A stretch of 64,000 bases of DNA from positions 1 to 64,000 of the IMG/VR virus record IMGVR_UViG_3300036818_000127; one strand, 5' to 3'. The notes under the pieces are model-generated. The model ran no database searches. It was not told where the DNA came from and saw only the letters and a program-made list of their open reading frames with translations. The position numbers and the translations under genes are program-made. This DNA comes from a virus. This document shows positions 1 to 41,749 of the stretch, piece after piece; the stretch's first letter is position 1, and each line of letters starts with the position of its first letter.

Positions 1-640
1 AGCATGAATGATGCAACCATGACAGAGCAAGCAACACACATGTGGTACATTGCAGCATTGGAAAGCAACTAGAGGGGAAATAAGCAGCAGGTAAACGGAA
101 TAATAGATGCAACAATATCTGTAGGACAATGCAACTGAGCTTGTCGAACCTTGCAATAAACAGGATTTACTGTGCAACAGTGGACCATGCGACACAATAG
201 AAGGAGACTTCTAGAGCAACACAGACTGGCGATTCGATCAGTCAGTCACCAAGCAACACGAGAGGTTAGTTACCAAGCTTGCAGCTAGGATGGTCTAAAG
301 TATGCAATGCAACAAGATAGCGTGAGGGATAAGTGCTGCAATGATATACCAATAATGCAACAATGGGAAATGATTGGCTTGCAACTTTGATATGTTATCC
401 ACCAAATGCAACTTTGATCAGAGAGTACTTATCCTTAGCAACATATGAGCGGCAACCACAACACGTAATGAGACCACTTAGTCAGAAGGTAACACAGAGA
501 CAAGCACCATGCAACACAGAGGATGAAATGCAATGAGAGGCAAGTGAGGATACAACTGGCGATCCAAGGTAAGCAACAAAGATGCCTATAAGGAGTACTG
601 CAACGTCAGGAAGAAAAGGTGCAACTACTGAAGTGCTACG
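1..640. repeat. Gene-free array of oriented TGCAAC hexamers
   Basis: About 25 copies of TGCAAC or one-mismatch versions (gcaac, tgcaat, tgcgac) lie at irregular 20-45 bp intervals, nearly all in the same orientation, with no credible gene. Examples start near 12, 108, 130, 173, 308, 356, 380, 408, 510 and 599. Some are preceded by GGGA-A-rich stretches (for example 363-385), recalling the complement of the 36-bp units at 32.5-32.9 kb. The array continues off the left edge. It is the opposite orientation of the array at 31.4-32.9 kb. Function unknown: CRISPR-repeat relics, iterons or a partition/packaging site are all possible. Confidence 0.75.
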
Positions 641-31374: not shown

Positions 31375-31414
31375 AAAAATACCCACTTTCATTATATATT
31401 CTTTGAAAGTGGGT
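31375..31414 (-). terminator. Rho-independent terminator facing the repeat array
   Basis: Perfect 10-bp stem ACCCACTTTC / GAAAGTGGGT (31381-31390, 31405-31414); the minus strand continues ATTTTTGTG. It would stop transcripts coming through the repeat array before they reach the promoter at 31.35 kb. Confidence 0.75.
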
Positions 31415-31427
31415 ACTCATAATAATA

Positions 31428-32535
31428 GTTGCAAATTTAATCACAATGTCAAACTATTGAGTGACATTGGTGTGTGCTGCATCAATCCCCATAGATCAGG
31501 CTATTGCATCAATCCCTAGATGGCTGGCCCAACGTTGCATGTATCGCAGTTCATTCTTGGTTGCAATTCTCCCATATGGTTGTCTTGACAATATCTTCAA
31601 AGTTGCACTGGCCTTTTCGTGAGTATAGTTGCATCTTGATCACTAGTTTCATCGCATTCCTAACAGTTGCACTATGCTCCTGATATGCATTCATTGTTGC
31701 ATTGAAAGCATCAGGATGCTGCGGTGCTTTTCAAGGATAGCCGGTTGCCTAGTAGCATCCCATTGTTGCATGATGATAGCTATTAGTTACAGTTGCACTA
31801 TAGTTGAAACTTTCCCTGGATAGTTGCATTATCTATGCCTCCCTATAATGCTACAACTTCCCCTTATTTAGTTACATTGACGCTATGCTGTTGCATTGCA
31901 ATTCAGCCTATGGGTTGCATTGGTAGTCACTGGAAGATTACTAGGTTACATCAATAACTTAGATAGCTAGTTGCATTTCATGCTTCATTAGTTACACTTG
32001 CTTCCATTTCTACCCTTGTTGCATAAAAGGTATATGGTCGTATCTCTGTCGCATTTATTGTTGCATCCAAAACCATTATCAGTGTTGCATCCTGTGGTGA
32101 CTGTTGCATCCCACTAAGTCCTCTGCATGTTGCAGTCAATATTACCTTGTTGTTATTGTCACATTTGCAAGCTGCATTATCCCTAACAGGAGAGATTTTA
32201 TAGTGCTGCATGTCATTTCTGGTTGCATTATAGTTGCATGTACTACTTGCCTCCAGTTGCAGTTTCCCCTGGGTTATACTAGTTGCATTGTGTCACCTGA
32301 TGGGATTGTGTTGCATTAATCCCCTCAAGGGACTATCACGTCAAGAAACCCGTTGCAGTCTTGTGTTGCATAGAAAGGAGTAGCAGTCTGTATAGTTGCA
32401 GTATCCTCTAATTTCTGACAGTTGCATCAATCCCTAGTTGAGATTAGGATAGCATTGTTAGGTTACAATTATGCCCTTTGCTAGTGCTGTTGCAATCATT
32501 GGGCTAGATAACTTTCACTAGAGGGATAGAGCAAA
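31428..32535. repeat. Dense array of oriented GTTGCA hexamers
   Basis: More than 40 GTTGCA or one-mismatch hexamers (GTTACA, ATTGCA, GCTGCA, GTCGCA) in 1.1 kb, almost all in one orientation; chance expectation for the exact hexamer is below one. Common steps are 19-31 bp, with no fixed period. Several are followed by TCAATCCC(C)TAG (for example 31503, 32310, 32421), the start of the 36-bp units further right. No credible coding frame. Orientation is opposite to that in 1-640. Confidence 0.9.
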
Positions 32536-32892
32536 GTTACAATCATTCCCCTAGCAGCTAGATCTCGCAACCTGTTTACACCTTCACCGATTGCTGTCAG
32601 TCGCTCGCAGTTGCAATTATTCTTCCAGCAGCCAGCCATTGCAATGGAAGTACATTATATTGCAATTATTCCTCCAGCGGCCAGCCATTGCAATTAGAGA
32701 AGAATAAAGGAGATGAGATGGGAAACAGGTTGCAATCATCCCCCAGCGACTAGACCCTTGCAACATGAGTTAGATGAGGGTGAGCAGCTGGCCTGGGCTC
32801 GTTGCAATCATCCCCCCTGGCAACTATGCCATTGCAATCAGCATATTCTATATGATTTACAATATCATACCCATTGCAATCATTCCCCTATA
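32536..32892 (+). CRISPR. Degenerate CRISPR-like array of 36-bp units, no cas genes
   Basis: Units at 32536-32571, 32610-32645, 32659-32694, 32729-32764, 32801-32838 and a partial one from 32873 start GTTGCAAT-CAT-(C/T)CCC and end (A/C)TTGCAA(T/C), so their ends are inverted repeats. Spacers are 38, 13, 34, 36 and 34 bp and unrelated to each other. Repeat and spacer lengths are typical of CRISPR, but units differ at many positions and no cas gene is in the window. It may be a decayed or phage-borne array, solitary-repeat anti-CRISPR RNAs, or a repeat family that only resembles CRISPR. Confidence 0.5.
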
Positions 32893-33097
32893 TATTTTAA
32901 AAGAGCCAGCCTCAAGGGAGCCACCGCGAAGCGAGTACCCGCTAGGGTTTTGTGGCGATGTTCCTGCCAGAAAGAGTCAAGTCCCCTATACCCCTAAGAG
33001 TAATCTTCGGATCATACGGCCATTCCCCAGCAGCTCGGCCTGTAACTACTGAAGCGAACTTCGACGAGCCGAGACAATCCGAAGATTGCAAAGCAGA

Positions 33098-33316
33098 TTA
33101 TAACACAGGTTTTCTGAGAAGTGTATCCCTTTTCTCCAATGCTTCCTTGAACATTTTCCATGCCCAACTCCGGCCAGATCCACGACTCCAGATGTCACAG
33201 GTATATGGCCTCCGGTCTCGAAGTATGGCCGTTACTCTATCGAAGTCTGCCTTCGTAAATTCGACGCATTCCTCAACATACTCATACTGCTCATTGCTGG
33301 TATTCTGCGTGTCCAT
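33098..33316 (-). CDS. Small hypothetical protein
   Basis: 72 residues from ATG 33316 (GAGG just upstream; ATG 33325 is an alternative). Basic/acidic helical protein with 'FTKADFDRVTAILRD' and 'SWAWKMFKEALEK'. Overlaps the end of the upstream zinc-finger gene. Unrecognised. Between it and the array (32893-33097) I see no further gene. Confidence 0.55.
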   Translation of the reverse strand: MDTQNTSNEQYEYVEECVEFTKADFDRVTAILRDRRPYTCDIWSRGSGRSWAWKMFKEALEKRDTLLRKPVL

Positions 33317-38413: not shown

Positions 38414-38578
38414 TACTTCAATTACTCTCTACTATTTGTAGAAAACTCTACAACTTTTTGGTTATGTACCCCAGGAAAGGGCCATACAACTAAGAGAGGA
38501 TAGATTACCCTACCTGACCATAAAACTTCCAGAATGGCACTACAGTGGCACCTGGTCCAATTGCTGGTTATACCCGTT
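38414..38578 (-). repeat. Dispersed 165-bp leader-like element, copy 3
   Basis: Minus-strand copy ending about 10 nt before the CmoA-like start. The first hairpin is imperfect here (ACATAAC / GTTGTAG) but the second is improved (TCTAC-AAATA-GTAGA). The 5' part of the element overlaps and encodes the last 13 residues of the SAM decarboxylase, so the element has inserted into, or been co-opted by, that gene's 3' end. Confidence 0.85.
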
Positions 38579-38938
38579 TCTTGGTGATCTATTTGCTCTC
38601 ATAATGAGATGAGCCTCAATATCATCTGTTTGGAAGATCTCTTTTGCAAAGGCAATTGCATCCTCCTGGCTAAATTCCTTGCAAGAGCAAATATCAATAT
38701 CAACCTCGCCGTGCTCCGGCCACGTATGCAGACTAACATGACTCTCTGCAATGATGACGAATCCTGATAGACCGGAATCTGCATAGCTCGGTGTTTGGAT
38801 ATTGTAGAGGGATGCTGGGCTTACCTTCTCCATCCCGATGCGAGAGGGATACTCATCAAGGATGCGGCGCATAAGTAATTCGTTACTCAGGATAGCTCGA
38901 TCAATATCGTACATTTCTAACATTAAGTGGATGAGCAT
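38540..38938 (-). CDS. speD: S-adenosylmethionine decarboxylase proenzyme
   Basis: 132 residues, AGGAGG upstream. 'SGLSGFVIIAESHVSLHTWP' and 'EHGEVDIDICSC' are the signature of bacterial/archaeal SpeD: autocleavage at E-S of 'AESH' makes the pyruvoyl cofactor; His of 'SLHTWPE' and Cys of 'ICSC' complete the site. Makes decarboxy-SAM, the aminopropyl donor for polyamines. No aminopropyltransferase is visible nearby. The C-terminal 13 residues come from the dispersed repeat. Confidence 0.88.
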   Translation of the reverse strand: MLIHLMLEMYDIDRAILSNELLMRRILDEYPSRIGMEKVSPASLYNIQTPSYADSGLSGFVIIAESHVSLHTWPEHGEVDIDICSCKEFSQEDAIAFAKEIFQTDDIEAHLIMRANRSPRNGYNQQLDQVPL

Positions 38939-38953
38939 GCTAGTTCTTTCCTC

Positions 38954-39466
38954 CTATAAAGATCCTGTCTTGAGTGCGTCGATTTTCCTCTGAAGATACC
39001 AGGAGAAAAACCCTTCATTTCTTTTTTGGAATTCAGGATCTTTCCAGGCATTGCCATCAATAGTGCCCCGACATTCAGGACTCCCACATTGACACTGCAT
39101 GCTCCAGACCCCATCATATCTCTCTGTTGTTTCATAATCGAAACATAGCTCTTCGCCTGCCAGGATATCACGGCGGGCAATGAATACCGTTTGGCCTTGC
39201 ACGCCGATATTCGGAGAGCAGCTATGATTCACCCCATAGGATTTCAGGTGGGGCACCCCGAGATAGACGTTATCACAAACATGATAGAAATTATCTGAGA
39301 TGGAGCGAGGAAAAGCATCAGTTTCCTCTTCAGTGATAATGTCCCCACCATATACAAAAGCGATTTCACCTTCTGGAATGAACTCTGTAGCAAAGAGGCC
39401 GATACCCTGGACAGGGCTGTTCTTGAATTCGCTCTTTGGCGAAAAGTAGGAATAATATTTATGCAT
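38954..39466 (-). CDS. SET-domain protein (protein lysine methyltransferase fold)
   Basis: 170 residues from ATG 39466 (AAGGAG upstream, overlapping the preceding stop). Shows SET motifs in order: 'GIGLFATEFIPEGEIAFVYG', 'YGVNHSCSPNIGVQG', 'DILAGEELCFDYETTERYDG' and the Cys-rich post-SET 'CQCGSPECRGTI'. Expected to methylate lysines using SAM. Most bacterial relatives have no known substrate. Here it sits among other SAM enzymes. Confidence 0.85.
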   Translation of the reverse strand: MHKYYSYFSPKSEFKNSPVQGIGLFATEFIPEGEIAFVYGGDIITEEETDAFPRSISDNFYHVCDNVYLGVPHLKSYGVNHSCSPNIGVQGQTVFIARRDILAGEELCFDYETTERYDGVWSMQCQCGSPECRGTIDGNAWKDPEFQKRNEGFFSWYLQRKIDALKTGSL

Positions 39467-40319
39467 TAGGAACTCCTTGGTGGATCTCACTAAAAAGACG
39501 GCGGTAAATGACAATAATTGCCTTCGCATGGCTTACATTGTACTTTGACTGAAGAAGCGTGTCATGCCACTCACGAAGTCCGCTGTTGATTTGCAATGGA
39601 CTATTTGTTCGGTACCATTTCCCACATTTCCAGAACTCAGGGAAGGCGCGGATAGCTAATCCCTTCTGGACAGGGATGTGGATATCATAGGATTTGCAAG
39701 AAAGAAGAAAGTCTATGAGGTCAGGATTGCGAAAGGAATCATAGATCTGTACCCCACATGAAAGTGCTGTTTTTATACAACTTATATCTGAACCACCTTC
39801 CCAAGCAAGCCATTCACGCCGCTTCTGCGTAAACCATTCCTCCCCATGTTCCTTGATACCTACAGAAAAAAAGCGAGATACGCCCCATAAGTCATCAGCA
39901 TTCATTGCGAATGATGCATCACGGTACCCATCATTAAAAGCTGCTTCTGCAAGATAGAGGAATGGATGCGCACATTGTATATGTATTTTTCTGAGTCTAC
40001 AGACAATTGGCAGCACACGGCGAATATCGGCAATGAGTGTTTCCTCATTCTGAGGGATTGAGACAATCGTATGGGGGATATCAAAGTACTTGCAGACAGA
40101 TCGAGAGACCTTTGCATCACTACTCTCACGGTTCCCTACCTGGAAGGTATAGCAGTGTGGTGGCTTATATCCGAGCGAGAGAATACCAGCAAGGTTTGTC
40201 ATACTATCAGTTCCGCCGCTTAGCATCAGCGGCATAGACACATAGGGCTTGATTGCCTCTTGGAACAGAGATCGGAATGTCTGCGCCTGCTGCTCTTGCT
40301 GTCTGCTCACTGCTCGCAT
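39459..40319 (-). CDS. Asparagine synthase-like PP-loop ATP pyrophosphatase
   Basis: 286 residues from ATG 40319, overlapping the methyltransferase stop. Has the PP-loop 'PLMLSGGTDSMTNLAGI', the adenylation-domain strand 'CYTFQVGNRESSDAKVSRSV' and 'SFAMNADDLWGVSRFFS' (D-D/E-L-W/F-G of asparagine synthases). There is no glutaminase domain, so it would use ammonia or another amine. Such proteins adenylate a carboxylate and couple an amine; a substrate made by the neighbouring enzymes is an attractive idea but unproven. Confidence 0.75.
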   Translation of the reverse strand: MRAVSRQQEQQAQTFRSLFQEAIKPYVSMPLMLSGGTDSMTNLAGILSLGYKPPHCYTFQVGNRESSDAKVSRSVCKYFDIPHTIVSIPQNEETLIADIRRVLPIVCRLRKIHIQCAHPFLYLAEAAFNDGYRDASFAMNADDLWGVSRFFSVGIKEHGEEWFTQKRREWLAWEGGSDISCIKTALSCGVQIYDSFRNPDLIDFLLSCKSYDIHIPVQKGLAIRAFPEFWKCGKWYRTNSPLQINSGLREWHDTLLQSKYNVSHAKAIIVIYRRLFSEIHQGVPNA

Positions 40320-41749
40320 TGATCTAGTATCCTCTCCTGTATCGTCTTGGCTACCTTTTCCATCATCACAGGAGGCACTGCACGGCCAAGTCGCTCCCAT
40401 TGCTGTGAATAGGTCCCTGTCAGAATAAAATCATCTGGAAATGCACAGATCCTCTTCAGTTCAGCAATAGAAAATTTCCGCTTCTCAGTTGGATGGGTAA
40501 CGCCAGCAGCAGCAGCAGGTGACCATGCAGTGCCAGCAGTCTGGGTGACAGTAGGGCATGGGCCATCAAGGGGTGCTCGCTGTAGAGAGAAGTATTTTTG
40601 ACTCTGTTCTCCAGGCTTTAATTTATCCCATTCCCTGCCGATTGCAAACTTGCTAATATCAGATTCAGGCTCAACAATCTGTTCCTCTATCCAGTGTGTT
40701 CCTACTGATCCAGATAAAACTGTTGGGCTCGGCTGGTCAGTAATATCGCTGCCATTACCAAAGGCCCCGCGATCATCACGGATAGCACGGATAGGGACAT
40801 GCTGTTCCTCGATATACCATTGCTGCATTGTCGTCAAGGTCGGAGAGGGAGTATCTGTAATGTCCCCCTTGCTATATTGAGGTTGGCCTTTTGCATCATG
40901 GATCGCACGTACAGGAATAGCTTCAATAAGGCTAGAAGGGGAAAGCCCATTTCCAAATGCTGGACTTGCGCCAATAGTGCCGCTAGGTGAGGTGGATGTA
41001 TCTCTCCATCCCTCTGTCCCGAATACTGGTCCAGCGCCTTGTCTGATGATCCAGGGCAATGCCTCACGTACTGTATAGGTATAAGGAAGTGGAGCCGGAT
41101 GGGCTGGCCTTATCTTGTACTGCTCAACAAGATCATTTCTCACACCGACAAAGATAAGGCGTTGGCGCATCTGGGGGACACCGAGCCACTGCGCATCAAG
41201 GATCTTGGCCTCAACAGTATAGCCACATGATTTTAGTTCCTTCAGTATCTCTAGGAAGTAGCCTTTAGCTGTCCCCTTCACAAGCCCGCTCACATTCTCA
41301 GCAACAAATACCTTTGGCTGTAATCCCTTGAGAAGTCGTACATATTCAAAGAAGAGATCATCAACCCGCTGGCGCGTATCACTGTAATCCTTGACTTTGC
41401 CCCAGCTTGCCTCACGCTTTCCAGCAGTTGAGAATGATGCACAGGGAGGACTTCCTTCAAAGACATCAAGCTCACCCTGATTTAGATGTATAGCTTTTAA
41501 AATCTCATCTGGTTTTATTTTACGGATATCACGCGCATCAAGAATAGAATGAGGATGATTAGCTTTATAGGTATCTCGTGCTGCTGGTATAAATTCATTT
41601 GCCCAAAGAATACGGTACCCTGCAAGACGGAATCCAAGGCAACTTCCGCCACACCCTGAGAATGTACTTACAACATTACGGCCATTCCATGGTATTTGTT
41701 CTATTTCCCTCATTGAAGGGACTCTGTAAGGAGGCTTGTCTTTTATCAT
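40307..41749 (-). CDS. DNA (cytosine-5) methyltransferase
   Basis: 480 residues from ATG 41749 (ATGA overlap with the ParB-like gene). Motifs in order: I 'VVSTFSGCGGSCLGFRLAG', IV 'EGSPPCASFS' with catalytic Cys, VI 'VFVAENVSGL', VIII 'GVPQMRQRLIFVG', and IX/X 'LGRAVPPVMMEKVAKTI'. The target-recognition part has three 'D-x-P-S/C-P-T' repeats (for example 'DITDTPSPTLTT'). It would methylate cytosine in phage DNA. No restriction partner is next to it, suggesting self-protection or base modification. Its neighbourhood of SAM-analogue enzymes raises the question whether it uses plain SAM. Confidence 0.92.
   Translation of the reverse strand: MIKDKPPYRVPSMREIEQIPWNGRNVVSTFSGCGGSCLGFRLAGYRILWANEFIPAARDTYKANHPHSILDARDIRKIKPDEILKAIHLNQGELDVFEGSPPCASFSTAGKREASWGKVKDYSDTRQRVDDLFFEYVRLLKGLQPKVFVAENVSGLVKGTAKGYFLEILKELKSCGYTVEAKILDAQWLGVPQMRQRLIFVGVRNDLVEQYKIRPAHPAPLPYTYTVREALPWIIRQGAGPVFGTEGWRDTSTSPSGTIGASPAFGNGLSPSSLIEAIPVRAIHDAKGQPQYSKGDITDTPSPTLTTMQQWYIEEQHVPIRAIRDDRGAFGNGSDITDQPSPTVLSGSVGTHWIEEQIVEPESDISKFAIGREWDKLKPGEQSQKYFSLQRAPLDGPCPTVTQTAGTAWSPAAAAGVTHPTEKRKFSIAELKRICAFPDDFILTGTYSQQWERLGRAVPPVMMEKVAKTIQERILDQCEQ

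What the first reader, a model, noticed from the sequence alone, without database searches (positions are those of the whole stretch)
32536..32892. CRISPR-like units with 34-38 bp spacers and no cas genes
Six 36-bp units with inverted-repeat ends (GTTGCAA ... TTGCAAC) are separated by unrelated 34-38 bp segments (one only 13 bp). Lengths and end structure fit CRISPR repeats, but the units are divergent. Phages can carry mini-arrays or solitary repeat units that act as RNA anti-CRISPRs.
Basis: partly seen in the sequence, partly recalled or inferred. Interest (0 to 1): 0.82.

Follow-up and report, generated by a model that had tools for sequence, protein, structure and literature searches.

The report
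Phage guide-RNA arrays with six-base repeats
A phage carries long non-coding RNA genes built like CRISPR arrays whose repeat has shrunk to about six letters, together with a matching helper RNA and, elsewhere in the same genome, a small Cas12-like protein that looks unable to cut DNA; it may be a new, stripped-down way for a virus to make very many guide or decoy RNAs.

Summary
The units are real but are the end of something larger. The window belongs to a 109-kb phage record. Units 32536-32892 (five complete 36-38 bp repeats plus a half) lead into a 1.45-kb non-coding array (31428-32888, minus strand) of about 47 units, mostly a 6-nt TGCAAC handle plus about 20 variable bases, closed by a hairpin terminator. 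Upstream lies a tracrRNA-like RNA (32893-33106). Its second copy, beside a 563-aa Cas12f/TnpB-like gene at 105.0-106.7 kb, heads a ~100-unit array running into window 1-640. So a cas-type gene exists, outside the window. Two related contigs share the mini-array; Salinibacter phages and a plasmid pair a homologous effector with ordinary arrays. Handle variants are those that still pair by G-U wobble with the helper RNA's GUUGCA (67 seen, 14.5 expected); non-pairing ones are not enriched (19 vs 31). The arrays therefore look like RNAs that dock on a tracrRNA. The effector lacks the third RuvC aspartate, so it probably binds without cutting. Most likely: a type V-F-like system whose repeat shrank to the short repeat:anti-repeat handle. 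Guide versus decoy function is unresolved: no targets found, and inter-handle sequence drifts at the local neutral rate.

The parts
32536..32892 (-). the units of the finding: five complete 36-38 bp repeats (sense strand e.g. GTTGCAAGGGTCTAGTCGCTGGGGGATGATTGCAAC) and one half unit, separated by 38, 13, 34, 36 and 34 bp
31428..32535 (-). mini-array: about 40 units, each a TGCAAC-type handle plus ~13-24 variable nt
   Evidence: motif strand bias 31:1, unit length mean 26-27, CV 0.40 vs 0.73 for random placement, 0 of 2000
32893..33106 (-). tracrRNA-like RNA element, homologous to L013 2820-3120(+) and L002 1240-1430(-)
   Evidence: alignment; not in Rfam
33037..33048 (-). candidate anti-repeat TAGTTACAGGCC (TAGTTGCAGGCC in the copy beside the effector gene, C1:106880-106891)
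33097..33102 (-). TATAAT, possible -10 box of the tracr-like RNA; the copy at C1:106804-106832 has TTGACA-17-TATACT
   Evidence: read from sequence; for the other copy
31375..31417 (-). terminator-like hairpin with T run directly after the last unit
   Evidence: z -5.7; sequence
1..640 (+). end of the ~100-unit mini-array that starts at C1:107130 behind the Cas12f-like gene (C1:105024-106715, minus) and its tracr-like RNA; runs across the record ends, which overlap by 127 bp

Best explanation
The units belong to a phage-encoded type V (Cas12f/TnpB-like) guide-RNA module. A tracrRNA-like RNA and the array behind it are transcribed on the minus strand and end at a terminator. [quoted passage not shown] The ~13-24 nt that follow act as a short guide loaded into the phage's 563-aa Cas12f-like protein. 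That protein lacks the third RuvC aspartate (G521), so it probably occupies DNA without cutting and silences host or rival genes. Shown here by computation: array anatomy and RNA strand, terminator, homologous tracr-like RNAs, handle/anti-repeat complementarity with wobble-limited variation, effector homology and RuvC residues. Inferred: co-transcription, RNP loading, guide use, silencing.
For: Enriched handle variants are exactly the four wobble-compatible ones, 67 vs 14.5 expected, the other 11 internal changes 19 vs 31. Complementary GUUGCA in the conserved upstream RNA; in Salinibacter handle TGAAAG and CTTTCA in the upstream RNA, two compensatory differences. Unit length is constrained to guide-like size. 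Effector: Pfam Cas12f1-like_TNB above cut-off, PADLOC Cas12f 1.6e-21, PDB CasX/Cas12f/TnpB; G521 aligns with the mutated catalytic position of dPlmCasX. Effector homologues sit beside ordinary arrays in Salinibacter phages and a plasmid. Short repeat:anti-repeat stem known from Cas12f1 (PMC11246509).
Against: No unit has a recognisable target in the phage, L002, Salinibacter loci or G001 beyond shuffles. Inter-handle sequence between L142 and L002 (480/539) drifts like fourfold sites of the adjacent ORF (34/38), unlike a kept guide. No Cas1 found. A long repeat:anti-repeat duplex was not convincingly found. The window's own tracr copy has GUUACA, one mismatch to TGCAAC. Transition bias could mimic part of the wobble pattern. 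Effector homology covers only the RuvC half. No expression data.
Confidence: 0.5

Rival explanations
1. Decoy array (multi-site RNA anti-CRISPR or sponge). Each unit is a crRNA mimic with a meaningless guide; the long RNAs soak up tracrRNA-Cas12f complexes of the host or a rival, helped by the phage's RuvC-defective Cas12f-like protein and its own tracrRNA.
For: Handles kept (93/96) while the text between them drifts at the local neutral rate; handles are gained and lost singly between L142 and L002; no adaptation gene found; no targets. Precedents: Racr RNAs and an inactivated phage Cas9c with tracrRNA thought to sequester crRNAs (PMC11656645).
Against: A plain sponge would not need unit lengths held near handle plus 20 nt nor regular 36-bp repeats with 34-38 nt spacers; the phage has its own tracr-like RNAs beside the arrays; no host system with a GUUGCA anti-repeat is known because the host is unknown.
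Confidence: 0.28
2. Nuclease-active CRISPR immunity of the phage against rival phages or plasmids, with G521 harmless.
For: Arrays plus effector plus tracr-like RNA; Salinibacter relatives keep the full RuvC triad.
Against: Third catalytic Asp is Gly in this effector; no protospacers found; no adaptation gene found.
Confidence: 0.07
3. DNA-binding sites of a phage protein (iterons, partition or packaging sites).
For: Clustered motif in non-coding DNA; GTTGCAAC is a palindrome.
Against: Variation follows RNA wobble on one strand only; spacing is loose; a terminator follows the last unit; complementary helper RNA and Cas12-like gene.
Confidence: 0.05
4. Decayed relic of a host-type CRISPR array.
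For: Units in 32536-32892 diverge from one another; most others are reduced to six bases.
Against: Handles are maintained and change only in pairing-compatible ways; three phages keep arrays of 47-100 units at matching sites, with terminators.
Confidence: 0.05

Closest known systems
Type V-F CRISPR-Cas (Cas12f1/Cas14)
   Same: Compact RuvC/zinc-ribbon effector; tracrRNA; repeat with GTTGCA...TGCAAC-type ends (the Un1Cas12f1 repeat, from memory); [quoted passage not shown]
   Different: Here most repeats are only that 6-nt stem, the effector N-half has no match, a RuvC Asp is missing, and the carrier is a phage.
Cas12-like loci of Salinibacter ruber phages and plasmid pSR16
   Same: Effector homologous over 92% of its length in the phages (24% identity); tracr-like region and array in the same order; handle complementary to the upstream RNA.
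   Different: Ordinary ~29-nt repeats with ~35-nt spacers, handle TGAAAG, RuvC triad complete, no mini-array.
TldR, phage-encoded nuclease-dead TnpB-like repressors (PMC13418256)
   Same: Phage-encoded TnpB/Cas12-family protein with damaged RuvC; RNA-guided silencing is the model here.
   Different: TldR loci have a guide cassette beside the gene; here there are a separate tracr-like RNA and arrays of 47-100 units.
Cas12m (V-M)
   Same: CRISPR effector that binds without cutting because of an altered RuvC site (PMC10442227).
   Different: Ordinary repeats; no mini-arrays; only marginal sequence match.
Viral mini-CRISPR arrays and Racr single repeats (PMC11656645, PMC10651486)
   Same: Repeat-like units in a viral genome that could compete with host crRNAs.
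   Different: Those are one or a few full-length, host-like repeats; here there are dozens of 6-nt handles with the phage's own tracr-like RNA and effector.

Membership tests
Classical CRISPR array | Near-identical direct repeats of ~20-50 bp | tested here: not met
   Mini-units share 6 nt only; the 36-38 bp units diverge. The small array at C1:82808-82979 is closer to classical.
Classical CRISPR array | Unique spacers of near-constant length | tested here: not met
   Unique, but unit length runs from ~12 to ~50 with CV 0.40-0.43; the regular part has 34-38 nt plus one of 13.
Classical CRISPR array | Spacers match mobile elements | tested here: inconclusive
   No match found, but host and its elements are unknown.
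Type V-F (Cas12f) | Cas12f-like RuvC and TNB zinc-ribbon domains | tested here: met
   PF07282 35 bits over cut-off 26.3; PADLOC Cas12f 1.6e-21.
Type V-F (Cas12f) | Full-length match to a Cas12f family model | tested here: not met
   NCBIfam Cas12f2 69 bits vs cut-off 450; match confined to residues 323-531.
Type V-F (Cas12f) | Complete RuvC catalytic triad | tested here: not met
   D346, E432, G521.
Type V-F (Cas12f) | tracrRNA with short anti-repeat pairing to the 3' end of the repeat | tested here: met
   By sequence and variation only; no experiment.
Type V-F (Cas12f) | Long repeat:anti-repeat duplex | tested here: inconclusive
   Absent for mini-units by length; for 36-bp units no better than shuffles except two or three cases.
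RNA anti-CRISPR (Racr) | Unit mimics the host's CRISPR repeat | not testable with these tools
   Host unknown.
RNA anti-CRISPR (Racr) | Solitary units or a few, without own effector | tested here: not met
   47-100 units and a Cas12-like gene in the genome.
TldR | RuvC-inactivated TnpB-family protein | tested here: met
   Sequence only.
TldR | Guide cassette adjacent to the gene, no separate tracr and array | tested here: not met
   Separate tracr-like RNA and arrays of 47-100 units.

The most novel reading that the evidence does not exclude
A virus-encoded, nuclease-dead Cas12 system whose CRISPR repeat has been cut down to the six-base tracrRNA-docking handle, so that about 150 different short guide RNAs fit in about 4 kb and let the phage silence many host or rival genes at once.
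Probability: 0.33. Interest if true: 0.95.

Novelty: new variant of a known kind. Interest (0 to 1): 0.82.

Why it matters
If the core reading holds, the repeat of a tracrRNA-dependent CRISPR RNA can be as short as six bases. That blurs the line between arrays, transposon guide RNAs and RNA sponges, shows how a virus can encode over a hundred guides or decoys without an adaptation module, and suggests a very compact format for many guides. Whether docking on the tracrRNA alone is enough to define a guide becomes directly testable.

Tried and rejected
Rfam: no match at the gathering threshold over the window, nor at E<=1 over 30.5-34.5 kb. A tracr pattern scan found only the L002 contig. An effector-only scan of IMG/VR found nothing. 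Alignment-based scans found Salinibacter phage loci and RuvC-only relatives, one of them (L152) with a plain 36-bp array. Targeting of the phage itself or of the relative G001 was tested and was not clearly above shuffles. The 91-kb relative G001 has neither effector nor array. Considered and rejected: chance, coding repeats, iterons.

Full report
1. Observation. The six units exist at the stated coordinates, with corrections. Four are 36 bp with inverted ends, the fifth is 38 bp, and the sixth is a half unit. Intervening segments are 38, 13, 34, 36 and 34 bp. They are the end of a larger object: from 32888 down to 31428 the plus strand carries GTTGCA(T/A) every ~26 bp, almost never in the other orientation (31:1). 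Flanking genes run on the minus strand, and on that strand the motif reads TGCAAC. The array ends in a hairpin with a 14-pair stem (z -5.7) followed by a run of T (31375-31417).

2. The same thing elsewhere in this genome. The window is the first 64 kb of a 109,417-bp virus record. The ends of the record overlap by 127 bp, so the genome is probably circular or terminally redundant. At its far end (C1:104001-109417 = L013) lies a 563-aa gene (C1:105024-106715, minus), then a conserved RNA-like stretch, then ~100 TGCAAC units that run across the record end into window 1-640. That copy of the RNA has a good promoter match, TTGACA-17-TATACT. A third, small array at C1:82808-82979 has hairpin repeats (type GACCCGTTAGAGGGTACTGCAAC) with ~30-36 nt spacers.

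3. Relatives. Contig 3300044718_000034 (L002; terminase 84% identical) has at the corresponding site the HNH gene, a homologous RNA element, regular ~72-bp units and a ~65-unit mini-array that ends in a terminator-like hairpin. In L002 the RNA element and its regular units point away from the mini-array, so there the mini-array is not directly behind the tracr-like RNA. Contig 3300044831_000039 (L142) has an array 90% identical to that of L002. A 91-kb relative (G001) lacks both array and effector, so the module varies between phages of this group.

4. The effector. Pfam Cas12f1-like_TNB is above its cut-off; NCBIfam guided_TnpB, Cas12f2 and CasX models match but stay below cut-off; PADLOC gives Cas12f 1.6e-21; PDB sequences give CasX, TnpB and Cas12f. 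These matches cover the RuvC/zinc-ribbon half only. D346 and E432 of the RuvC triad are present; the third Asp is G521, aligned without gaps to the alanine that replaces the catalytic Asp in dead PlmCasX. Inactivity is inferred from sequence, and a sequencing error in a single record is not excluded. Homologues of 24% identity and 92% coverage are in 182 Salinibacter ruber phages, and a shorter one is on plasmid pSR16. The loci examined (L134, L137, L136) have a plain array of ~29-nt repeats just downstream, absent from the annotation shown. The Salinibacter phage protein keeps the Asp (HADLNAA). A tie between this effector family and arrays therefore exists outside this phage.

5. The handle works by RNA pairing. 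Positions after the six bases carry almost no information, and the base before is weakly A. Of the 15 possible single changes at positions 2-6, the four strongly enriched ones are exactly those that remain paired to GUUGCA through G-U wobble: 67 seen, 14.5 expected; the other 11 total 19 against 31 expected. Position 1, a helix end, is loose. The chance that the four enriched of 15 are the four predicted is 1 in 1365; among the five internal transitions it is only 1 in 5, so transition bias is not fully excluded, and TGCAAT is the weakest of the four because it is also frequent on the other strand. The direction of the wobble also says which strand is the RNA: the TGCAAC strand. The predicted partner exists: the conserved RNA element contains TAGTTGCA(G/C)GCC, or TAGTTACAGGCC in the window copy. 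In Salinibacter the handle is TGAAAG and the RNA upstream of the array has CTTTCA followed closely by GGCC: two paired positions differ in a compensatory way. [quoted passage not shown] The mini-units look like crRNAs that kept only this short stem. A long anti-repeat was sought and not convincingly found.

6. Guide or decoy. In the paired L142/L002 arrays handles are kept at 93/96 bases and the rest at 480/539 (Fisher p 0.014). Fourfold sites of the ORF next to the array are kept at 34/38, so the inter-handle text drifts at about the local neutral rate. Fourfold sites of terminase and portal are lower (334/433), so this block may have a younger common ancestor. No unit shows a target above chance in the phage itself, L002, the Salinibacter loci or G001, and no convincing database match was found for the arrays tested; matches of 13-24 nt cannot be recognised in large databases, and the host is unknown. 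No Cas1 was found in the record. Guides that co-drift with host genes, guides tolerant of mismatches, and decoys all remain possible. I commit to RNA-guided binding by the RuvC-defective effector (0.5 for the whole chain; about 0.75 for the core claim that the arrays are tracrRNA-docking crRNA-like RNAs) over the decoy (0.28).

7. Novelty. Full-text searches of the open library found no description of arrays with six-base repeats; preprints and most subscription papers are not held, so this is weak evidence of absence. The parts are of known kinds (compact Cas12, tracrRNA, phage arrays); the reduction of the repeat to its docking handle is, to my knowledge, new. I file it as a new variant of a known kind and not as a member of subtype V-F, since a full-length family match and the complete RuvC triad were tested and not met.

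Noticed in passing
window 1-127 and L013 5291-5417 (C1:109291-109417): The first and last 127 bases of the record are identical: probably a circular or terminally redundant genome, with the big mini-array running across the junction.
   Followed up: partly
L134, L137 (Salinibacter phages), L136 (plasmid pSR16): Cas12-like protein followed by an array of ~29-nt repeats and a tracr-like region; the shown annotation says hypothetical protein or zinc ribbon protein and lists no array.
   Followed up: partly
L152 5566-5775: An 85-kb viral contig with a Cas12/TnpB-like match directly followed by 3-4 copies of a 36-nt repeat at 73-bp spacing.
   Followed up: no
L013 3134-3340: Between tracr-like RNA and mini-array, GTTGCA occurs four times on the sense strand; two copies lie in hairpin loops (CTACCTGCTCAT...ATGAGCAGGTAG; TTTCAG...CTGAAA), as if presenting further anti-repeats.
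   Followed up: partly
window 33037-33048: The window's own tracr copy has GUUACA instead of GUUGCA, a mismatch to most handles of its array but a match to the TGTAAC variant.
   Followed up: partly
L002 5848-5873 and L142 168-194: A single mini-unit (27 identical bases) sits alone before a second terminator-like hairpin in L002 and inside the array in L142: units move or are copied.
   Followed up: no
L002 1720-2060: Dense GTGTACGAC/GTCGTACAC palindromic repeats in the non-coding gap before the mini-array.
   Followed up: no
window 38540-40400: By eye, genes resembling an S-adenosylmethionine decarboxylase, a SET-domain methyltransferase and an asparagine-synthase-like protein, unusual cargo for a phage (no family search done).
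   Followed up: no
arrays A, B, C (sense strand): Inter-handle sequence is A-rich on the transcribed strand (A 0.33-0.35, T 0.23-0.26) unlike the window average (A 0.26, T 0.28).
   Followed up: no
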